NCBI RefSeq assembly: GCF_000002985.6
Contig: NC_003281.10
Coordinates: 2,418,001-2,482,000, forward strand
Length of the DNA: 64,000 nucleotides
Direction: 5' to 3'
DNA from: Caenorhabditis elegans
Taxonomy: Eukaryota; Nematoda; Chromadorea; Rhabditida; Rhabditidae
Part shown: piece after piece, positions 15,412-53,548 of the stretch
Layout: each line of letters starts with the position of its first letter
Numbering within the stretch: position 1 is the first letter of the stretch
The notes under the pieces: generated by a model
Database searches by the model: none
What the model was told of the DNA's origin: nothing
Seen by the model: only the letters and a program-made list of their open reading frames with translations
Position numbers and translations under genes: made by a program

Positions 15412-17559
15412 AATTTCTCGAATTTTTCATGTCCAATCATCAACACCAACACCATTCCTCGTGATTGTAATCCCTCCCTGTTTCTTCAACAATTAACTTT
15501 AATTTAATTATTTTAGTATTGTAATTATTGAAATCTCCAGCGATTGTAATCACCCCTTCCACACCCCTTCCACATCCCTTCCACATGGAAGTCCCTTACC
15601 GAGTGTAGAAGTCTTTAACACCTGACAACTTCTACAACCTGAAAAAGTTTTCTTGACACCTGACAAAACTCTTTTCACATAACATCTAGACCGCTTCTAA
15701 TCTATTTATCCTGAAACTATCTGGATCATCTTTAAAGATAGCTGAAATGTAACTCCTAACATTTATTCAATTCATCACATTCCATCAAAAGTACCTTCTC
15801 TCATTCTCTTTTTCTCTGTTATCTCAAAACTCAAATTTACCCAAATTCAAGAACTCAACTCTTTTTATCTTATCCACAAGTCCATTCCTTCCAAAAAAGG
15901 CCATTCATGATCTATCCACTGCTGATAACAAATATAATTAATTATTTAATTTCATATACTTGTTCTAAATAAATATTATTCCTTTGTTATCGATTTTTGT
16001 TAAAACAGAAAACGAAGTTATTACTTGGCAGAAGAGCGAAAATATGAAAAAGTGACCTGAAACTTTTTCAGATCACTTTTCCGGAAATTCACGCAAATAG
16101 GTAGCTTACCACTAGAAAGAGTGAAAAGTTCCAAGAAAATCTGAAAAAGATTGGGCCAAAAATTCTTAGTTTTGCACTGAAATATTTTCTGGTGTTTTTT
16201 TATTCAAAACTGTTGAAAACTTGATTAAAGTTGGTACTGCTCAAAAAAAGTTACGGTGCCTTAAAAAAATGGACTAAAACTAGTTAACATTTGACCGACT
16301 TGTCACGCGGCTGGAAACTAACTTTTTTGAAACCAATTGAAATGTGAGAATTATTACACAAATGGACTCAATTAAATTATTCAATATGTTGTAATAAATT
16401 GCAATATTGGAGCAGAAGCTCAATCTATTCTGTTAATTTCACACCACTGTTGTATTTCAAGAAGAAATTTTGACAACATTCCGTATGGTTAAAAAAAATA
16501 AATTTAACAACGACTTAACCTTAGTGTTGACCAATATTGTGTGTTTAGCAAACAGAGATGATTTTTGTATTTGAATTTATTGATAATACATTACTCGGCA
16601 GGGGTAAAATGAGAAAATTAGAAAAATGTAGTGGTAGTGTCAAGATAATATCATAGTACAATCATTCGGAAACAACAACTTCCTGGGGCTCGGTAGTTGG
16701 GACCTGTTGAAGAGTACAGTGAAACATAACATGAAAACATAAAATCACGTATTTCACATAAATGCAGGCATAAACGAACAAAACCGACGTGAAACATAAA
16801 AAGGAGATTGGTGCGTCGTCTGATCCCATCTTTAAAAACACAACTTCGGAAAAAATTGTCCTGAAAAAATATTGTTTTAATTTGAAAAGTTGCTAACACT
16901 TACACTAAATAAATAGAAATCCTGACGAAAACGAATATACAATAAGCAAGTTCACCAAATTTCTCGTTATTATTTTCCCGACTCCAAAACAACACTCGTT
17001 CAAAAACAATTAGAATAGTAGATGCAAACATGCATATCGAAGCGTCTTTCAGCTGTCCAGATTTGTTCTCAGATCTTGAATAAAAATGCATGCTAAACAT
17101 GAAAAGAGCAGTACATATGATTGCGAGGGATACATTAGTGGAAATATAGCACACTGAAATATAAATTTGAATTTTTCAAAAAAATATTAAAAGCCAACAA
17201 CTTACCTTTCTGGACAACTGTGGTCATTGTGAAGGTTATGTGAGTATCTAAGAAAAGTGCAGCCTTTTGTATGGTTCGTTATCATTGTCACACATTTTTT
17301 AGAGCTTTGAATACGAACAACGTGCTGTGAATAAATACAAATGGTTTGTAGCTTGATAAGAGTTGTTTGATTATGAAAAATGGGTTATTACTCAAGTTTT
17401 TTTCCCATGTGGAAGGGGGGGGGGGGGGCATGGATAAAAAATTTTTGAATAAGGTGAAATGGGATAGGTAACAGAAGAAAACCAGTTTTTTTTTTGAAAA
17501 TTTTAGACAGGATCTTCCAAAAAGAGAAGTATTCATTCGTAATCTATAATTTCCACTTC
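15412..17559. repeat. Left arm of giant palindrome (2.15 kb)
   Basis: Reverse complement of 17777-19920. Outer edge AATTTCTCGAATTTTTCATG, inner edge GTAATCTATAATTTCCACTT. Every segment I compared was identical except a G run of 14 here against 11 C in the other arm. The spacer is about 217 bp. Confidence 0.95.
16662..17227 (-). CDS. Four-helix membrane protein, left copy of palindrome pair
   Basis: Exons 17206-17227, 16904-17153 and 16662-16860 (minus strand) give 156 residues. After a short MTTVVQK start, four hydrophobic segments follow: about residues 9-32 (STNVSLAIICTALFMFSMHF), 44-62 (ICMFASTILIVFERVLFW), 76-103 (LAYCIFVFVRISIYLV..IFSEVVF) and 110-138 (ISFLCFTSVLFVYACIYVKY). A polar tail ends QEVVVSE. 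No signal peptidase site is evident. The family is unrecognised; the topology suggests a small tetraspan protein. The coding sequence is the exact mirror of 18105-18670, and the two are transcribed divergently from the palindrome centre, so promoters are duplicated as well. Confidence 0.75.
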
Positions 17560-17776
17560 ACAAAGAAAGAAACAAAGAAAGAAACAAAAAAATTAATAAA
17601 AATTCTCGAAATGTTTGAAATTTTTTTCAGTTTTGCGACGTCAGAACTACCGTATTTCCTCTATTAGTTAGGTATCTCTATTAGTTTTGCACCTCCATTA
17701 GTTTTGCATCTAAAATCACTAATCGAAAATTAATTTTGCACCCCTTAATTTGTTCGTGGAAATTATAGATTACGAA
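17560..17776. other. Palindrome spacer
   Basis: About 217 bp of unpaired DNA containing an AAAGAAAGAAAC run, ATCTCTATTAGTTTTGC / CCTCCATTAGTTTTGCATC short repeats and an extra tandem copy of GTGGAAATTATAGATTACGA at its right edge. Confidence 0.8.
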
Positions 17777-19920
17777 AAGTGGAAATTATAGATTACGAAT
17801 GAATACTTCTCTTTTTGGAAGATCCTGTCTAAAATTTTCAAAAAAAAAACTGGTTTTCTTCTGTTACCTATCCCATTTCACCTTATTCAAAAATTTTTTA
17901 TCCATGCCCCCCCCCCCTTCCACATGGGAAAAAAACTTGAGTAATAACCCATTTTTCATAATCAAACAACTCTTATCAAGCTACAAACCATTTGTATTTA
18001 TTCACAGCACGTTGTTCGTATTCAAAGCTCTAAAAAATGTGTGACAATGATAACGAACCATACAAAAGGCTGCACTTTTCTTAGATACTCACATAACCTT
18101 CACAATGACCACAGTTGTCCAGAAAGGTAAGTTGTTGGCTTTTAATATTTTTTTGAAAAATTCAAATTTATATTTCAGTGTGCTATATTTCCACTAATGT
18201 ATCCCTCGCAATCATATGTACTGCTCTTTTCATGTTTAGCATGCATTTTTATTCAAGATCTGAGAACAAATCTGGACAGCTGAAAGACGCTTCGATATGC
18301 ATGTTTGCATCTACTATTCTAATTGTTTTTGAACGAGTGTTGTTTTGGAGTCGGGAAAATAATAACGAGAAATTTGGTGAACTTGCTTATTGTATATTCG
18401 TTTTCGTCAGGATTTCTATTTATTTAGTGTAAGTGTTAGCAACTTTTCAAATTAAAACAATATTTTTTCAGGACAATTTTTTCCGAAGTTGTGTTTTTAA
18501 AGATGGGATCAGACGACGCACCAATCTCCTTTTTATGTTTCACGTCGGTTTTGTTCGTTTATGCCTGCATTTATGTGAAATACGTGATTTTATGTTTTCA
18601 TGTTATGTTTCACTGTACTCTTCAACAGGTCCCAACTACCGAGCCCCAGGAAGTTGTTGTTTCCGAATGATTGTACTATGATATTATCTTGACACTACCA
18701 CTACATTTTTCTAATTTTCTCATTTTACCCCTGCCGAGTAATGTATTATCAATAAATTCAAATACAAAAATCATCTCTGTTTGCTAAACACACAATATTG
18801 GTCAACACTAAGGTTAAGTCGTTGTTAAATTTATTTTTTTTAACCATACGGAATGTTGTCAAAATTTCTTCTTGAAATACAACAGTGGTGTGAAATTAAC
18901 AGAATAGATTGAGCTTCTGCTCCAATATTGCAATTTATTACAACATATTGAATAATTTAATTGAGTCCATTTGTGTAATAATTCTCACATTTCAATTGGT
19001 TTCAAAAAAGTTAGTTTCCAGCCGCGTGACAAGTCGGTCAAATGTTAACTAGTTTTAGTCCATTTTTTTAAGGCACCGTAACTTTTTTTGAGCAGTACCA
19101 ACTTTAATCAAGTTTTCAACAGTTTTGAATAAAAAAACACCAGAAAATATTTCAGTGCAAAACTAAGAATTTTTGGCCCAATCTTTTTCAGATTTTCTTG
19201 GAACTTTTCACTCTTTCTAGTGGTAAGCTACCTATTTGCGTGAATTTCCGGAAAAGTGATCTGAAAAAGTTTCAGGTCACTTTTTCATATTTTCGCTCTT
19301 CTGCCAAGTAATAACTTCGTTTTCTGTTTTAACAAAAATCGATAACAAAGGAATAATATTTATTTAGAACAAGTATATGAAATTAAATAATTAATTATAT
19401 TTGTTATCAGCAGTGGATAGATCATGAATGGCCTTTTTTGGAAGGAATGGACTTGTGGATAAGATAAAAAGAGTTGAGTTCTTGAATTTGGGTAAATTTG
19501 AGTTTTGAGATAACAGAGAAAAAGAGAATGAGAGAAGGTACTTTTGATGGAATGTGATGAATTGAATAAATGTTAGGAGTTACATTTCAGCTATCTTTAA
19601 AGATGATCCAGATAGTTTCAGGATAAATAGATTAGAAGCGGTCTAGATGTTATGTGAAAAGAGTTTTGTCAGGTGTCAAGAAAACTTTTTCAGGTTGTAG
19701 AAGTTGTCAGGTGTTAAAGACTTCTACACTCGGTAAGGGACTTCCATGTGGAAGGGATGTGGAAGGGGTGTGGAAGGGGTGATTACAATCGCTGGAGATT
19801 TCAATAATTACAATACTAAAATAATTAAATTAAAGTTAATTGTTGAAGAAACAGGGAGGGATTACAATCACGAGGAATGGTGTTGGTGTTGATGATTGGA
19901 CATGAAAAATTCGAGAAATT
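17777..19920. repeat. Right arm of giant palindrome (2.14 kb)
   Basis: Reverse complement of 15412-17559. It ends at 19920, where GAGAAATT gives way to GACACAAGC within an exon-like RS-domain sequence. Confidence 0.95.
18105..18670 (+). CDS. Four-helix membrane protein, right copy of palindrome pair
   Basis: Exons 18105-18126 (donor GTAAGT), 18179-18428 and 18472-18670 are joined in phases 1 and 2; 471 bases, 156 residues. Protein identical to the left copy. Hydrophobic segments, Cys content (CYIS, IICT, ICMF, AYCIF, LCF, ACIY) and the acidic C-tail (TTEPQEVVVSE) are as described there. A poly-C tract lies in the 5' flank and contributes to a spurious 81-codon ORF (17799-18044) that I do not call. 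Conservation of both copies could reflect very recent duplication or ongoing arm-to-arm gene conversion. Confidence 0.75.
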
Positions 19921-20234: not shown

Positions 20235-20340
20235 TGTAAGCCTAAGTATACACCTAAGACCAATCCTAAGCCTGAGCGTAAGCCTAAGCCTAAGCCTGAG
20301 CCAAAGCCTAAGCCATATCCTAAGCCTAAGCCTAATCCTA
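20235..20340 (-). repeat. Interstitial telomere-like (TTAGGC-type) repeat
   Basis: About 100 bp of CCTAAG units (AAGCCTAAGCCTAAGCCTGA), i.e. degenerate TTAGGC, the nematode telomere unit, on the minus strand. Confidence 0.8.
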
Positions 20341-20630
20341 ATTTGGTAGTTTTGAGTCATTTTGAGTCTACAAAAAGTCTGAAATTTCATTCCTCGCCTC
20401 TTCAAAAACTCCAGGTGGGACCTCCATGTTGTAGCGGTAAATTTCTTCGTAATTTTTGAGTCTTGATGGCGCTCCATTGCTCGAAAGAAGGCTTTATGTT
20501 TCTTCACAAATCTTCAAAATTCAAGTTGTAGCCCGCGTTCTGAAGTTTTTAGAATTAGAGAATAATGCTGAAAATCTAAAAATTACTTCAAAGTTCTTGT
20601 AAGACTTCAAATTAAAAATATTCCAGAAAA

Positions 20631-25915: not shown

Positions 25916-26646
25916 TCAGAATGCAATCGCAAATAGAACAGTACCTAGAATGATAGGAAATACGAACAAGGAAGATGATGCTTTCGATTCGGAATCTTTT
26001 GCAGGGGCATCAGTTAAGCGGGAGGCCGATGGGGTGGTTGTCTCTTTTACATTAGTATTGATAGTAGAGGATGCCACAGTAGATGTTGAAGATAGTTCCT
26101 CCTTGGCCGATGTCACCGGAGCTGGTGTTGTAGGAGTTTCACTAGTGGTAGATGCGACTACAGTGGACGTGGAGGAAGCTAACACTTCAGGTGAAGTCTC
26201 AGCAGTATCCGGAGTAGGTGTCGTAGTAGCCTTAACAGGAGAGCATAGTCCGTCATTATTGTAATAGTCCTTTGGGCATTTAGATCCAGGAGTTCCTTGG
26301 GATTTACTTTTCCACCATTTGTTGCTGTACAGAGGTGACATTTGACAATCGATACCCTACAATGCATCTCAATCCCCATGATAGTTTTGTAATGAGGATT
26401 AAGCAATGTTGTTGAATCTTGAATAATCTGAAAAAAAAATCAACTTTTGACTAATCTAGTACTTTATTCACATTAACTCTCCAGTTCATTCATATATGCT
26501 ATTTCATACTTCTTAGCCACTTCTCGACGATACTCATTCAATTCCTTCACCTTTATTTCAAACTTTGCAGGAAACTCCCTTTCGCCGCTGGTATCTTGAG
26601 CACACGAGAGCCCAAGGAATATCAGAATAAGGACAGATGCTAGCAT
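25916..26646 (-). pseudogene. CAP-like secreted protein with Thr-rich stalk and GPI-type tail (probably broken)
   Basis: The ATG at 26644-26646 opens a signal peptide (MLASVLILIFLGLSCAQ) and the start of a CAP/SCP-like domain (KVKELNEYRREVAKKYEIAY, MNEL), then meets TAA. After an acceptor at 26428 another segment reads IIQDSTTLLNPHYKTIM, and a further frame (26341-25916) carries the C-terminal module NKWW...GTPGSKCPKDYYNNDGLCSP, a long Ser/Thr/Pro/Ala stalk and a hydrophobic end (SSSLFVFPIILGTVLFAIAF) typical of a GPI-anchor signal. The central part of the CAP domain is missing and the pieces are in different frames, so full-length function is unlikely; 26341-25916 alone could still be expressed. 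Signal peptide and tail closely match the gene at 27.2 kb. Confidence 0.5.
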
Positions 26647-27242: not shown

Positions 27243-27674
27243 TCAAAATGTAATCGCAAAAAGAACAGTACCTAGAATTATAGGAAATACAAACAGGGAA
27301 GATGATGCTTTTGAATCAGAATCTTCAGGGGCACCAGTTAAGCGGGAGGTAGATTGAGTGGTTGTCACTTCTACAGTAGTGCTGGTAGTAGAGAATGCCA
27401 TAGTAGATGTTGAGGAAGCTTCCTCCTCAGCTGGTTTATCAGTAACTGGAGTTATAGATCCTTCCTCTTCAGATGATGCTTCCCCTCCATATAATGTCTC
27501 CTGAACTGGTGTTGTAGAACCTTCCTCTTCAGATAAGTTTATCTCTGGAGTCGAGGTTTCCGGAGCTGGTGTTGTAGAGGCATCATCAGTAGTGGATGAT
27601 ACCACAGAAAAAGCAGAAAAATCTTGAGCACAAGAGAGCCCGAGGACTATTGAAATAAGGACGGAGGCTCTCAT
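27243..27674 (-). CDS. Secreted Ser/Thr-rich (mucin-like) GPI-anchored protein
   Basis: Single-exon ORF of 143 residues. Signal peptide at residues 1-16 (MRASVLISIVLGLSCAQD). Residues 20-115 are rich in Ser, Thr, Pro and Glu, with repeats of (S)EEEGS-TTPV and EEEASSTST that suggest dense O-glycosylation. After a Ser-Lys-Ala-Ser-Ser-Ser linker comes a hydrophobic C-terminus (LFVFPIILGTVLFAITF), a GPI-attachment-type tail. No folded domain is visible. Signal peptide and the last 35 residues closely match the CAP-like locus just upstream (25.9-26.6 kb), and both stop codons are followed by similar DNA. This looks like a paralogue that lost its globular domain. Promoter has a TATA-like TATATAAAGG on the coding strand. 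Confidence 0.75.
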   Translation of the reverse strand: MRASVLISIVLGLSCAQDFSAFSVVSSTTDDASTTPAPETSTPEINLSEEEGSTTPVQETLYGGEASSEEEGSITPVTDKPAEEEASSTSTMAFSTTSTTVEVTTTQSTSRLTGAPEDSDSKASSSLFVFPIILGTVLFAITF

Positions 27675-28222
27675 GATTTTAATGTATCTTCTTTTGGATA
27701 TACCCTTTATATATGTGTTTTATTGAATGGGATATTCTCACAATATCCTGACGCTAGTTTTATTTATTTTTTGTTTGTAAAGAGAGTTTGATTGAAATAT
27801 AAATCTAGGTGGATTTAACAACAAAACTGTGAAAATTTTCAAAAAGGAAAAATAATTGGATATTCTTGTGACGTTAGTGTTTTCTAACATACAAAATGCT
27901 TAAAAACTGGCTACCATATACGTTATATTGTCGCTTCGCCTGTTTTACTTTGAAAGGTTATATCTCACTCCGTTACAAATATATCAATAGATAATAGACA
28001 TATATCAATAGATAATAGATATATAAAAAAAGAAATAGGCAATATTTTGTTAGTTGATAAGATTTTAATAGAACAACTGACAAATGACATTTAAGCTGTC
28101 AAAGAAAAAAAGTATACCCAATTCTTTATTTCCGTCACCCCGCGCCCAAAGATGAAAAAAAAGTCAATATAGTTTCCTCCCGTTGGCACAAACGCTTATC
28201 AGTGATCATTTGTTGTTCCGCA

Positions 28223-30535
28223 ATGTCGCTGGCAACTAAATTCCCCAAAAACTTCAAGTTAGCAACTGCAACTGCCGCCTATCAAATTGAAGGTGCCAAG
28301 GATTTGAATGGTTAGTTGCTTTATGTGATGGAGTTTTAAATTTTTTTTTTTTTGAAAACTTTTTTTTCAGGCCGCGGCTTCAGCACCTGGGATGCCATCC
28401 GCCTGGAACCCGGCCGAATCCTTGACAATTCCGACCCGGACCTTTCTTGTGATGGTCTCCTAAAGTACAAGGAGGATGTAGCTCTTCTCGCTGAAATCGG
28501 TGTCACCAACTATCGATTTTCCATCTCCTGGTCCCGAATTCTCCCGGACGGAACTTTATCGACTATCAACGAGGAAGGCATCAAATTCTACCGGGATCTG
28601 TGCCTATTGCTAAAGGAGAATAATATCGAGCCAGTGGTTACCCTGTTCCATTTCGACATGCCACTTGCGATATACGATAACGGAACTGCTTGGCTTAACA
28701 GGGAGAACTGTGAGCATTTTGAGAAGTTCGCAGATCTATGTTTCCAAAAGTTCGGGGATCTCGTGAAAACATGGATCACATACAACGAGATCAACTGTCA
28801 AGCATGGGGATCGATTGTGAAGGTTGAAGGGGAGTTCTGGTTGTGCCCCGAGCGTCCGGAGATTGAGAATCACAAACAGGCACCGTATTTGTGAGTTTGT
28901 GAAGAAATGGCGACCTGAAAGGTCCGTCGGCGTTCGGGGACCGAGTAGTTGACGGACTGAATCGATTTGCCGGCCTGTAAACGGCCCGTAGTCGGCCATG
29001 TCCGTTCTACAAGTGTATAGATTGATAGTTAGGCCAATATACACCACTGGCATAAGTTGAGTTGTTCCAGACTACCTCAAAGTTTTCGGGACGGCAGGTT
29101 TCACAGCTGATTCGTGTCGATATACGGAGCGTTCCCCTTCTCCGTAAATTGGCTGAAAGGCTCCGTAAATTGGCTGAAAGACTCCGTAAATTGGCTGAAA
29201 GGCTCCGTAAATCGACACAATGCATTTTTTGGGCCGGTAATTGTAGAATAATTAAGGCGAACCCTTCACGGTAGGCAGGCGAGAGCGCCTTACAACTTCA
29301 CGTGATCAAACCGTAACGGGGGAAACCTGACACCACGTGTGGCATGTGTTTTTAGCATAAAACTCAGTCCAGTCACCTCAGTCCAAACTTAAAAACGAAC
29401 CTAGCTGCTGTTGACCTTTGTAGATCACAAAGAGATTTATCCGTCTAGATCACACTCTTGCCGGCCTTACGACCACCCTATTTTTTCAGCGGCGCCGCCA
29501 ACATGCTCCTGACCCACGCGAAGATCTACCGAAACTACGACCAGAACTACAAACCAACACAGCATGGGATCCTTGGAATCACGAATGGAGGAAGGTTCTG
29601 CTTCCCGGCAACCGATTCGCAGGAAGACATTGAGGTAGGGAAACTCGCATGTGCCCTAACAACTATATTTTCATTTTTCCAGGCTTGCAATCGAGCTCGC
29701 GACTGGCTATTTAACTTCACGATTGAGCCGATTCTCTCTGGTTCGGGAGATTTTCCAGTGCTGATGAGGGAGAGAATGCCGTTTATACCGAAGTTTAGTG
29801 AGGAGGAGAAGGAGATTATTAAAGGTTCGAGTCAGGGAAAGCACTTCACCGATTCAAAATTTTTTCCAGGAAGCACTGACTTCATCGGAATCAACTACTA
29901 CCTCAGCTTCCTGGTTCGCGCGCCGAAAGATGGTGAGAAAGCTTCTTCCCAGTCTCAGCATGACGGTGGTTATGTGTTTGTGGAGGGAAAATGGGATAAG
30001 TTAGTAGTAGATCGTTGCATTCAATCAATCCCGCAGTTCCTTCAGAATATGCGGCGAAACCTGGATTCGTTACGCCCCTGATGGGCTCCTAAAAATTTTG
30101 AGATATGTCAAGGAAAAGTATGCAAATACTCCGGTGTTTATAACCGAAAATGGATGCATGGATATAGTCGGGCAGGACCAAGAAGATGCTTTTCACGATC
30201 AACATCGAATTGATTACATCTCTGGGCATTTGGAAGCGGTGGCGAAAGGTAAGAATTGTCAACTAGCGAAATGTTTATCATAGTCTTTTCTACGGAATCC
30301 TAATTAATCATTAATCAATAATACAGTTTTTTCAGCTCTCGATGAAGGCTGCAACGTGATCGGTTACACTGTTTGGACGCTAATGGACAACTTCGAGTGG
30401 GATGACGGTTTTGAGCTCAAGTTCGGGCTCTGTGAAGTCGATTTCGAATCTCCTGATAAAACACGGACTATGAAGAAGTCCGCGTACTTTTATAAGGAGT
30501 TTATCAAGGAGTTCAAGGATTTTCATGGGATTTGA
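28223..30535 (+). CDS. klo-2: Glycoside hydrolase family 1 beta-glucosidase (klotho-like)
   Basis: Seven exons join in phase into 475 residues: 28223-28310, 28371-28890, 29490-29634, 29683-29824, 29870-29999, 30046-30248, 30336-30535. That is the normal GH1 length. Landmarks: FKLATATAAYQIEGA near the N-terminus, FSISWSRILPDG, the acid/base region TYNEI (family TFNEP; the Glu is kept, Pro is Ile), GINYY, the nucleophile motif FITENG, and WTLMDNFEWDDGF near the end. Both catalytic glutamates are present, so it may be active. No signal peptide, so probably cytosolic. Intron 29825-29869 is 45 bases, in frame and without a stop, so its retention would only insert 15 residues; removal restores KGSTDFIGINYY. 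The large intron at 28891-29489 holds a tandem repeat and a MITE scrap. The symbol rests on memory of C. elegans E02H9.5. Confidence 0.8.
29140..29212 (+). repeat. 20-bp tandem repeat in klo-2-like intron
   Basis: CTCCGTAAATTGGCTGAAAG repeated three and a half times with one substitution (AAAGA for AAAGG). Confidence 0.9.
29301..29340. mobile_element. Family M MITE end fragment (copy 4)
   Basis: GTGATCAAACCGTAACGGGG then CTGACACCACGTG, the right terminal part of family M, inside the large intron of the beta-glucosidase gene. Confidence 0.6.
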
Positions 30536-37314: not shown

Positions 37315-37975
37315 TGGCTTAGACAGTCTTAGGCAGGCTTAGGTAGGCATAGGCAGGCATAGGCAGGCTTAGGTAGGCTTAGACAGGCTTAGGTAGGCTT
37401 AGGCAGGCATAGGCAGGCATAGGCAGGCTTAGGCAAGCATAGGCAGGCTTAGGCAGGCTTAGGCAGGCTTAGGCAGGCTTAGGCAGGCTTACAGAGGTTT
37501 AGGCAGACTCAGGCAGGCTTAGGCAAGCTTAGGCAGGCTTAGGCAAGCTTGGGCAGGATTAAGCATGTGTAGGCAAGCGTAGGCAGGTGTTGGCAGGCAT
37601 GGGCAGGCTAGGTAGGCTTAGGCAGGCTCAGAAGGCTTAGGTAGGCTTAGGCTGGCTTAGGCAGGCTTAGTCAGGCTTATGCAGGCATAGGCATGCTTAG
37701 GCAGGCTTAGGCAGGCTTAGGCAGGCTTACAGAGGTTTAGGCAGACTCAGGCAGGCTTAGGCAAGCTTAGGCAGGCTTAGGCAAGCTTGGGCAGGATTAA
37801 GCATGTGTAGGCAAGCGTAGGCAGGTGTTGGCAGGCATGGGCAGGCTAGGTAGGCTTAGGCAGGCTAGGCAGGCATAGGCAGGCTTAGGCGAGCTTAGGC
37901 AGGCTTAGGCAGGCTTAGGCAAGCTTAGGCATGCTAAGGCAGGCTTAAGCAGGCATAGGCAGGCGTAGGCAGTAT
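37315..37975 (+). repeat. Long interstitial telomere-like array
   Basis: About 660 bp of GGCTTAGGCAGGCTTAGGCA units, a 10-bp period built on TTAGGC. A block from TTACAGAGGTTTAGGCAGAC to GGCATGGGCAGGCTAGG is present twice (about 37490-37615 and 37728-37852), showing a larger, roughly 238-bp duplication inside the array. Confidence 0.9.
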
Positions 37976-43740: not shown

Positions 43741-44940
43741 ACGGCTTCTGAAACGTATAAAAACTCGTTTTTCGGCTTAGGCCCACGCCAAAGATTTTCG
43801 ATTTTCTCCTCATTTAAAAAAAAAAAATTTTTTTTCGAAAAATCGATAAAAATTGATGATTATCGATTTTCATCCTGAACCCCCAGAAAAATCAATAATT
43901 TCTTTTTCAGAAATACGATTATCTGGTCCCACGTGCTGATACACAAAAACGTGCCGAACAAGAGGCTGCGGATAAACGTGCGGCGACGATTACTGTAGAT
44001 TCGACGATGCGGGCGGTTCGGGAAAGGATCACACAGCGGGAACTTGTACGAAAAGTGGAAAATGATACGCCAAAGATTTTCGATTTTCTCCTCATTTTTT
44101 TAAAAATTATTTTTTTTTTCGAAAAATCGATAAAAATTGATGATTATCGATTTTCATCCTAAACCCCCAGAAAAATCAATAATTTCTTTTTCAGAATTAC
44201 GATTATCTGGTCCCACGTGCTGATACACAAAAACGTGCCGAACAAGAGGCTGCGGATAAACGTGCGGCGACGATTACTGTAGATTCGACGATGCGGGCGG
44301 TTCGGGAAAGGATCACACCGCGGGAACTTGTACGAAAAGTGGAAAATGATACGCCAAAGATTTTCGATTTTCTCCTCATTTAAAAAAATTTTTTTTTTCG
44401 AAAAATCGATAAAAATTGATGATTATCGATTTTCATCCTAAACCCCCAGAAAAATCAATAATTTCTTTTTCAGAATTACGATTATCTGGTTCCACGTGCT
44501 GATACACAAAAACATGCCGAACAAGAGGCTGCGGATAAACGTGCGGCGACGATTACTGTAGATTCGACGATGCGGGCGGTTCGGGAAAGGATCACACAGC
44601 GGGAACTTGTACGAAAAGTGGAAAATGATACGCCAAAGATTTTCGATTTTCTCCTCATTTAAAAAAATTTTTTTTTTCGAAAAATCGATAAAAATTGATG
44701 ATTATCGATTTTCATCCTAAACCCCCAGAAAAATCAATAATTTCTTTTTCAGAATTACGATTATCTGGTTCCACGTGCTGATACACAAAAACATGCCGAA
44801 CAAGAGGCTGCGGATAAACGTGCGGCGACGATTACTGTAGATTCGACGATGCGGGCGGTTCGGGAAAGGATCACACAGCGGGAACTTGTACGAAAAGTGG
44901 AAAATGATACGCCAAAGAAAAGTGCACTGATTTTTGATAT
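43741..44940 (+). repeat. Four-fold tandem array of an exon-bearing 279-284-bp unit
   Basis: Exon-like blocks of 165 bases at 43911-44075, 44195-44359, 44474-44638 and 44753-44917, each after CTTTTTCAG and open for 55 codons: (K/N)YDYLVPRADTQK, RAEQEAADKRAATITVDS, RAVRERITQRELVRKVEND. A GTACGA donor after ...QREL would make each exon 135 bases and phase 0 at both ends, so copies could splice together in frame. The units between them share an intron-like CATCC(T/G)(A/G)AACCCCCAG segment. Copies differ by only a few bases, so the expansion is recent. I cannot find start or stop exons and do not recognise the protein; it looks like a charged helix. Confidence 0.7.
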
Positions 44941-48949: not shown

Positions 48950-49012
48950 GGTATAAGCCTAAGCCTGAGCTTTAGCTGAAAGCCTAAGCCTAAGCCCAAG
49001 CCTAAGTAAGTC
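48950..49012 (-). repeat. Short telomere-like repeat
   Basis: AAGCCTAAGCCTGAGC and AAAGCCTAAGCCTAAGCCCA, CCTAAG units downstream of the CAP-like pseudogene. Confidence 0.75.
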
Positions 49013-49346: not shown

Positions 49347-50285
49347 TCAAATATGCGTTCCTCTGTCGTAAATTTGAACATCCATGGTCTTGTCGACTGT
49401 TCTGAAACGATAGAAAAGTGCACAAAATCGAAAATTTATTAGAACCCACGCAAGATAAATGTTGTACGTTCCCCAGTCGACTTTCAGTGACTTAACATTT
49501 CTACTTGGATTGCAGTCGTGGATGATGAGCATGTAGATTTCAAACTCCTGCTGGAAAATTTAGGCTTAGGCTCAGGCTTAGGCTTAGGCTTGGCGTCCAC
49601 AGAGCGGCTTTTACTACGTGGCCTAGAAAAATCAAAAACTCGGCCAATGATTTATCTGGGATTTTTGACGTGGGATGTTTCTGAAACTTGACGAGAATGT
49701 TCTCGAAAGGGGGTTCTATTGTTCCACCGTGGCGATTTTTGAGAAAATGTTCCGTATCCATGTTAATGAAGGTGGCCGAGTTTTCTTATTTTACGGCCAC
49801 GTAGTAAAAACCGCTCTGTGCGTCAGTGGCGAGCGTTAGCTAGCTCGCCACTGACGCTATTTCGGCTTAGGATTTTCCGGTTTTTCTGATTTTTCAGTGG
49901 GTTCCTGTTGGCGGATCAACGCTTAGGCTTAGGCTTATGCTTAGGTTTAGGCTTAGACTTAGACTTAGTCCTAGGCTTAGATTCAATTACCAAAATATCA
50001 GCTCCGTCGTCAGTATCATTTCCAATAACATCGTACGTATTCGGCCTCCTTGAAACCATCCAATCAGTCTCTCCAATCTTGTCGTCCACTTCTTTGCTGA
50101 AAATTTCAGAAAAAAAAGTTGATGGCCCAAATCCTGACAACTCACAACGTATCCTCTTCATGCATCTCCACACGATAGTTGAAAACTGGCAGTGGGCAAA
50201 TTAAATTGCCAGAAAAATGGAATCTAGTTCCAAGTACAGCGGGAATAAGGAATATAAAAGTAAGGAGAAGGTGTTGGGAAACCAT
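49347..50285 (-). CDS. Transthyretin-like secreted protein (divergent pair, left)
   Basis: Minus-strand exons 50146-50285, 49991-50096, 49450-49550 and 49347-49401 give 133 residues. Signal peptide MVSQHLLLTFIFLIPAVLG, then FHFSGNLICPLPVFNYRVEM and HEEDT (the G-x-L-x-C-P-x-P start of a TTR-like domain), NDTDDGADI, and EIYMLIIHDCNPS (conserved HDC), ending in IYDRGTHI. The last intron (49402-49449, 48 bases) is in frame without a stop, so retention would add 16 residues. Intron 2 carries telomere-like repeats and a MITE. Its start lies about 200 bp from the plus-strand paralogue at 50486, suggesting a shared divergent promoter. TTR-like proteins are nematode-expanded extracellular proteins; the ligand here is unknown. 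Confidence 0.8.
49556..49985 (+). repeat. TTAGGC-like tracts in TTR-like intron
   Basis: Two short runs, 49559-49592 (TTTAGGCTTAGGCTCAGGCT) and 49919-49984 (ACGCTTAGGCTTAGGCTTAT), flank the MITE at 49598-49820 within intron 2 of the minus-strand TTR-like gene. Confidence 0.8.
49598..49820. mobile_element. MITE in TTR-like intron
   Basis: CACAGAGCGGCTTTTACTAC at the left against GTAGTAAAAACCGCTCTGTG at the right, followed inward by GTGGCC/GGCCAC. 223 bp. Next to it is a perfect small palindrome, CGTCAGTGGCGAGC / GCTCGCCACTGACG (49821-49857). Confidence 0.85.
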
Positions 50286-52262: not shown

Positions 52263-52725
52263 TAATGCCTTTGTTATTAATAAGGCCAGCATCTCAAATT
52301 ATGAAACCTACACTAACAGAAGTCTAGCACTGAGTTTTTAACGTATCTTATCATAATATGATAAATTCTAAAATAATTGGTTCAGAGTATCTGAACATAA
52401 AACTACTCGGTAAAACGTTGCAACTTCATAGCACACTCTTGCAACTTTTCAGGCATCCTTTTATGTTTTAACTTCTTAACAAACCTCTGCAACTTCTTCG
52501 CAAAGATTCAATAAAATTGGTTCTGGCGACGCACACGCTGTTTTTTAGAAAGCTCCTGCAAAGTTCTGCAGATTCCTGCAGACTTTAAACACGCGAAAAT
52601 CGCGTTGCGGATAGGTTTTTATTCGAATAGTTTTTCCTATTTTCTCGGATTATTTAAAGATTTTTTGTTTTTTAAATGTATTTTTAATACTTTTTTCACA
52701 AATGGTTGGAATTGGAAATGGCTGG

Positions 52726-53548
52726 ACCCAGCCTACCCCAGGCAGACCCAGCCTACCCCAGGCAGACCCAGCCTACCCCAGGCAGACCCAGCCTACCCCA
52801 GGCAGACCCAGCCTACCCCAGGCAGACCCAGCCTACCCCAGGCAGACCCAGCCTACTCCAGGCAGACCCAGCCTACCCCAGGCAGACCCAGCCTACCCCA
52901 GGCAGACCCAGCCTACCCCAGGCAGACCCAGCCTACCCCAGGCAGACCCAGCCTACTCCAGGCAGACCCAGCCTACCCAGGCAGACCCAGCCTACCCCAG
53001 GCAGACCCAGCCTACCCCAGGCAGACCCAGCCTACCCCAGGCAGACCCAGCCTACCCCAGGCAGACCCAGCCTACCCCAGGCAGACCCAGCCTACCCCAG
53101 GCAGACCCAGCCTACCCCAGGCAGACCCAGCCTACCCCAGGCAGACCCAGCCTACTCCAGGCAGACCCAGCCTACCCCAGGCAGACCCAGCCTACCCCAG
53201 GCAGACCCAGCCTACCCCAGGCAGACCCAGCCTACCCCAGGTAGACCCAGCCTACCCCAGGCAGACCCAGCCTACCCCAGGCAGACTCAGCCTACCCCAG
53301 ACAGGCCTAGCCTACCCCAGACAGGCCTAGCCTACCCCAGACAGGCCTAGCCTGCCCCAGGCAGCCTAGCCTACCCCAGGCAGGCATAGCCTACCCCAGG
53401 CAGGCCTAGCCTACCCCAGGCAGGCCTAGCCTACCCCAGGCAGGCCTAGCCTACCCCAGGCAGGCCTAGCCTACCCCAGGCAGGCCTAGCCTACCTCAGG
53501 CAGGCCTAGCCTACCCCAGGCAGGCCTAGCCTACCCCAGGCAGGCACC
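52726..53548. repeat. 20-bp satellite, about 41 copies, two sub-blocks
   Basis: Unit GGCAGACCCAGCCTACCCCA repeated almost without change from 52726 to about 53285, then a variant unit GGCAGGCCTAGCCTACCCCA to 53548. One 19-bp unit (near 52975) shifts the phase. The period is not a multiple of three and no stop occurs in any frame, so all three forward frames read the same 20-residue repeat (QADPAYPRQTQPTPGRPSLP). The long ORFs here are therefore artefacts of the repeat. Confidence 0.95.

What the first reader, a model, noticed from the sequence alone, without database searches (positions are those of the whole stretch)
15412..19920. 4.5-kb near-perfect palindrome carrying a divergently transcribed identical gene pair
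Arms of about 2.15 kb separated by only 217 bp appear identical apart from homopolymer length (14 G against 11 C). Each arm holds a complete three-exon gene for an unrecognised four-helix membrane protein, including promoter and 3' flank. Such near-identity implies either very recent duplication or continuing arm-to-arm gene conversion, as in sex-chromosome palindromes. A long inverted repeat with a short spacer is also expected to be unstable and could be a source of double-stranded RNA.
Basis: partly seen in the sequence, partly recalled or inferred. Interest (0 to 1): 0.85.

Follow-up and report, generated by a model that had tools for sequence, protein, structure and literature searches.

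The report
Worm palindrome with duplicated siRNA-target gene
A 4.5-kb mirror-image stretch of the C. elegans genome carries two identical copies of a small worm gene pointing away from each other; it is a real but fairly ordinary inverted gene duplication, and the gene pair appears in print as a recent duplication targeted by the worm's own small RNAs.

Summary
Arms 15412-17558 and 17777-19920 are reverse complements with no substitution; the only difference is a G14 versus C11 run, and the spacer is 218 bp. The gene is C. elegans W04B5.6: a five-exon model in either arm reproduces NP_497555.1 exactly. A six-frame search of the window's genome found the protein only in these two arms.

Fischer et al. 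[quoted passage not shown] That E02H9.6 is the other arm is my inference. Palindromes of this kind are known in C. elegans; a small-heat-shock (hsp-16) palindrome in the same assembly has 1,891-bp arms with one mismatch.

Best reading: a young inverted duplication, silenced by RdRP-made 26G/22G siRNAs. The arms are identical because the event is young; arm-to-arm conversion is possible but unshown. The genes diverge, so their own transcripts are not complementary; a hairpin would need transcription through the centre. New member of a known kind; modest interest.

The parts
15412..17558 (.). left palindrome arm, 2,147 nt
17777..19920 (.). right palindrome arm, 2,144 nt, reverse complement of the left arm with 0 substitutions
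17559..17776 (.). 218-nt spacer; holds a dispersed-repeat piece at about 17645-17743
17415..17428 (+). G14 run, the only site that differs between the arms (C11 at 17907-17917 in the right arm)
18105..19782 (+). right-arm gene copy: exons 18105-18126, 18179-18428, 18472-18583, 19156-19222, 19694-19782 give NP_497555.1 (W04B5.6) exactly; alternative third exon 18472-18670 gives 156 aa
15550..17227 (-). left-arm gene copy: exons 17206-17227, 16904-17153, 16749-16860, 16110-16176, 15550-15638 give the same protein
17228..18104 (.). 877-bp region between the two ATGs; promoters of both divergent genes should lie here (inference)
   Evidence: coordinates
17756..17799 (+). the same 21 nt twice: 17756-17776 (end of the spacer) and 17779-17799 (two bases inside the right arm); candidate templated-insertion scar
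16236..16332 (.). remnant of a dispersed repeat in the left arm; mirror copy at 19000-19096, inside the third intron of the five-exon model

Best explanation
A young inverted (palindromic) segmental duplication in C. elegans copied one complete small gene, W04B5.6, with its flanks, to give a divergent pair (W04B5.6 and, by inference, E02H9.6). SHOWN here: geometry, zero substitutions, abrupt boundaries, identity of the protein, no other copy of the protein found in the genome. [quoted passage not shown] INFERRED: the duplication arose by replication or break repair with template switching at the inner junction (the repeated 21 nt), and the arms are identical mainly because the event is recent. 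INFERRED from the published pathway: RRF-3 and Dicer make 26G RNAs on the mRNA, ERGO-1 and secondary 22G RNAs silence it, and because the copies are identical any siRNA from one copy can act on both.
For: Arms with 0 substitutions and one homopolymer difference; no collinear homology just beyond either edge; the protein matched only the two arms, 4 of 4 matches at E <= 1; exact match to NP_497555.1; W04B5.6 and E02H9.6 named as adjacent and likely recent duplicates among eri-6/7 targets. The gene fits the published target profile (short, few exons, poorly conserved): the one protein hit, of 8 candidates, is the gene itself, and neither protein model has a Pfam match up to E = 1. The third intron of the public model has a weak-looking donor (TAC|gtgatttt), in line with the poor splice signals reported for ERGO-1 targets (review passage). 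Zero differences fit any age up to about 380,000 generations.
Against: Zero substitutions do not exclude conversion: Zhao et al. report that the hsp-70 (F44E5.4/.5) and hsp-16 structures predate speciation yet have near-identical arms in C. elegans. 'Lineage-restricted' is weak: I could not tell which nematode genomes the protein database holds, and a search with the exon-2 frame returned no candidate at all, not even this locus. Three of the four introns of the public model start with gtaag and do not look poorly spliced. The sequence of E02H9.6 was not seen.
Confidence: 0.62

Rival explanations
1. The palindrome is old and its arms are kept identical by continuing arm-to-arm gene conversion, as proposed for other C. 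elegans palindromes and for primate Y palindromes.
For: hsp-16 in the same assembly: 1,891-nt arms, 414-nt spacer, 1 mismatch, reported as older than the species split; 99.7% arm identity at F44E5.4 with the same argument; passages of PMC3966223 list hsp-16 among loci with evidence of gene conversion.
Against: No relative outside C. elegans found that would show age (both weak); no collinear homology beyond the arm edges, although hsp-16 outer edges are equally abrupt (10 of 60), so edge sharpness does not discriminate; the G run is not homogenised; the same paper reports that the hsp-16 structure degenerated in C. briggsae, so maintenance is not universal.
Confidence: 0.28
2. The palindrome itself triggers silencing: read-through RNA crossing the centre folds into a 2.1-kb hairpin that feeds Dicer, and the structure is kept for that role.
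For: The pair are endogenous siRNA targets; any transcript crossing the centre would carry one sense and one antisense arm (sequence).
Against: The genes diverge, so their own RNAs are not complementary; the siRNAs are described as 26G RNAs that need RRF-3, with non-canonical Dicer duplexes; I showed no inward promoter; many targets in that study form clusters with shared homology, and the text read does not describe them as palindromes.
Confidence: 0.07
3. Assembly artefact at a clone join (the two copies carry names that look like two clones, W04B5 and E02H9).
For: The two gene names have different clone prefixes.
Against: A false overlap would be expected to give a direct, not inverted, copy; a 218-nt spacer and different G-run lengths separate the arms.
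Confidence: 0.03

Closest known systems
C. elegans gene-bearing palindromes of Zhao et al. 2007 (F44E5.4/F44E5.5 hsp-70; hsp-16 locus T27E4; F42F12 pairs)
   Same: long near-identical arms with complete paralogous genes and a short spacer; the hsp-16 locus measured here has 1,891-nt arms, 414-nt spacer, 1 mismatch and HSP20 reading frames in the arms
   Different: those are reported in three Caenorhabditis species; here no relative in another species was found, so conservation of the structure is untested
eri-6/7-dependent (ERGO-1 class) endogenous siRNA targets (Fischer et al. 2011)
   Same: W04B5.6 and E02H9.6 are named members; short, few exons, near-identical paralogue
   Different: targets there are described by shared sequence; the text I read does not describe this pair as a palindrome
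Primate Y-chromosome palindromes (recalled; discussed and cited in PMC1803023)
   Same: near-identical arms with genes
   Different: autosomal, about 2-kb arms, conversion not shown here

Membership tests
C. elegans gene-bearing palindrome | long near-identical inverted arms with paralogous genes and a short spacer | tested here: met
   control locus
C. elegans gene-bearing palindrome | inverted structure conserved in sister species | not testable with these tools
   I had no other Caenorhabditis genome to search; protein searches gave only the gene itself and no candidate
eri-6/7 and ERGO-1 class siRNA target | 26G/22G siRNAs against the gene, lost in eri-6/7 mutants | not testable with these tools
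   no small-RNA data used; taken from Fischer et al. 2011, section 7 read
eri-6/7 and ERGO-1 class siRNA target | short, few exons, near-identical paralogue | tested here: met
eri-6/7 and ERGO-1 class siRNA target | poor conservation | tested here: inconclusive
   no relative found, but nematode coverage of the database is unknown
Palindrome under arm-to-arm gene conversion | arm divergence far below expectation for its age | tested here: inconclusive
   age unknown; zero differences fit up to about 380,000 generations without conversion
Mobile element with inverted ends | many copies of the arm in the genome | tested here: not met
   full-length arm at 2 places; the other 69 of 71 matches listed are short pieces of a dispersed repeat at arm positions 805-929 (40 of 256 first-look candidates were scored, so repeat counts are lower bounds)

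The most novel reading that the evidence does not exclude
Palindromic architecture itself routes young genes into the ERGO-1 pathway: an inverted duplication creates occasional through-transcripts that form hairpins, these recruit the RdRP, and the pair is silenced from birth; W04B5.6/E02H9.6 would be a clean natural test locus.
Probability: 0.1. Interest if true: 0.6.

Novelty: new member of a known kind. Interest (0 to 1): 0.3.

Why it matters
It joins two literatures that, in the texts I read, are not joined for this locus: near-perfect gene palindromes and siRNA silencing of newly duplicated genes. The locus has a palindrome with zero substitutions, a defined central spacer and a published siRNA dependence, so it could test whether inverted geometry adds anything to silencing beyond copy number.

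Tried and rejected
Transposon: rejected, 2 full-length places. Hidden protein family: no Pfam family up to E = 1 for the 156-aa or the 179-aa model; AlphaFold2 on the single 179-aa sequence gave mean pLDDT 48.6, pTM 0.38, too poor for a fold search, so none was run. Rfam families at gathering score and tRNAs in the window: 0 and 0 (the tRNA tool ran with the bacterial code). Edge erosion as a clock: not discriminating, because the hsp-16 outer edges are equally sharp. A 3-kb flank comparison gave one 36-nt match at 86% (E 1.2e-6) that is not collinear with the arms, and short weak ones. The G run as a landmark: common in this genome, 2,093 forward and 2,524 reverse overlapping 14-mer matches. 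Naming the right-hand neighbour: no source name returned. Frequency therefore rests on the 64-kb window and one 200-kb stretch of chromosome V chosen because I recalled hsp-16 lies there; it is not a random sample. Two papers on inverted repeats in C. elegans (PMC6239182, known to me from the reference list; PMC310894, a catalogue for chromosomes III and X, from the reference list) are not held, so a listing of this palindrome there cannot be excluded. My first notebook entry placed the G run two bases off; one search gives the right place.

Full report
What is there. The window lies at C3:2418001-2482000 of a genome of 100,286,401 bases in 7 contigs, whose fifth contig has 20,924,180 bases. 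From recall these are the sizes of the C. elegans N2 reference and its chromosome V, so C3 should be chromosome III; the protein search names the gene as C. elegans W04B5.6. The palindrome has arms 15412-17558 and 17777-19920, with 0 substitutions and one difference, G14 against C11, and a 218-nt spacer. Arm edges are abrupt: 11 of 60 and 17 of 60 matching bases just outside the outer and inner ends. A 3-kb flank comparison gave one 36-nt, 86% match that is not collinear with the arms.

The gene. The public protein NP_497555.1 (179 aa) is reproduced letter for letter by five exons in the right arm, and the left arm gives the same protein. A simpler three-exon reading gives 156 aa and is also open. 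The two share the first 128 residues. Kyte-Doolittle windows of 19 at a cut-off of 1.6 give about four hydrophobic stretches in both (8-33, 45-63, 76-94, and 108-141 or 108-129), so a small membrane protein is plausible. No Pfam family was found for either model and no usable fold. The six-frame search of the genome places it only in the two arms: 4 of 4 matches at E <= 1, all 5 candidates scored.

What is in print. Fischer et al. 2011 (PMC3213143; [quoted passage not shown] As one search found no third copy, E02H9.6 should be the other arm; I did not see its sequence. A search for W04B5.1 to W04B5.6 gave 4 papers; I saw passages of 3 of them and did not open PMC5179134. A search for four E02H9 names gave 2 papers; I did not open PMC5603424. 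None of the passages seen describes the palindrome; nor did the listings point to a paper on this locus. Supplements could not be read. W04B5.1, a pseudogene with the same clone prefix, is also reported as a potential direct endo-siRNA target (passages of PMC7136021); I did not place it in the window.

How unusual. Zhao et al. 2007 (PMC1803023; parts 1-3 of 4 read) describe the same architecture for hsp-70, hsp-16 and F42F12 pairs and argue for active maintenance, perhaps by gene conversion, while reporting that the hsp-16 structure degenerated in C. briggsae. The parts read do not mention W04B5. As a control I measured the hsp-16 locus in the same assembly: 1,891-nt arms, 414-nt spacer (the paper also gives 414), 1 mismatch near the outer end; three frames taken from it, two of them a mirror pair, match Pfam HSP20. 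Its outer edges are equally sharp (10 of 60). With at least 300 nt and 90% identity, the window gave 1 inverted pair and the 200 kb of chromosome V gave 2 overlapping rows at the hsp-16 locus.

Age. Passages of PMC8727991 give a wild-type substitution entry of 0.0184, in units that the msh-2 entry of the same table (0.42, stated in the text as 4.22e-8) shows to be 1e-7, hence 1.84e-9 per site per generation. For 2 x 2,144 sites this predicts 0.79 substitutions per 100,000 generations, and zero stays above 5% probability up to about 380,000 generations. That paper reports G/C runs as more indel-prone than A/T runs in mismatch-repair-impaired lines, so a run-length difference as the first visible change is not surprising. 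Youth alone therefore can explain the identity; conversion is not needed but not excluded.

Formation. The last 21 nt of the spacer (17756-17776) repeat the 21 nt at 17779-17799, which start two bases inside the right arm. Passages of PMC5068794 describe templated insertions, some over 20 bases, by repeated priming in C. elegans polymerase-theta repair. An abortive first copy at the inner junction is my inference; without an outgroup the extra copy could be older.

Silencing. Both genes point outward, so their mRNAs have the same sequence and do not pair. The published scheme has 26G RNAs that need RRF-3 and Dicer, with ERGO-1 and 22G RNAs downstream. The palindrome is thus not required for siRNAs; a hairpin route remains possible only if RNA crosses the centre.

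Verdict. A real, clean, recent-looking member of a known class of C. elegans palindromes whose gene pair is already published as an siRNA-targeted, likely recent duplication.

Noticed in passing
52725-53543: Minisatellite of about 41 copies of a 20-bp unit, 97% matches.
   Followed up: no
43785-44918: Four tandem copies of a 279-bp unit, 97% matches.
   Followed up: no
20237-20341, 37316-37972, 48954-49006, 49560-49591, 49921-49980: Short-unit arrays whose units are, or contain, the nematode telomere unit TTAGGC (unit recalled) or a shifted form of it, inside the chromosome.
   Followed up: no
25916-26356 and 27243-27719, minus strand: Two threonine-rich open frames with nearly the same hydrophobic C-terminus; a search with the second gave itself and one 62% relative, 2 of 250 candidates at E <= 1e-5, and no Pfam match above cut-off.
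   Followed up: partly
28340-28894 and 29449-30081, plus strand: Open frames matching Pfam Glyco_hydro_1 (family-1 glycosidase), E 9.8e-54 and 9.5e-07, probably exons of one gene.
   Followed up: partly
17645-17743: The spacer contains a piece of a dispersed repeat; best copies elsewhere are 93-97% identical; 87 matches in all for the spacer query, this locus included, with 40 of 146 candidates scored.
   Followed up: partly
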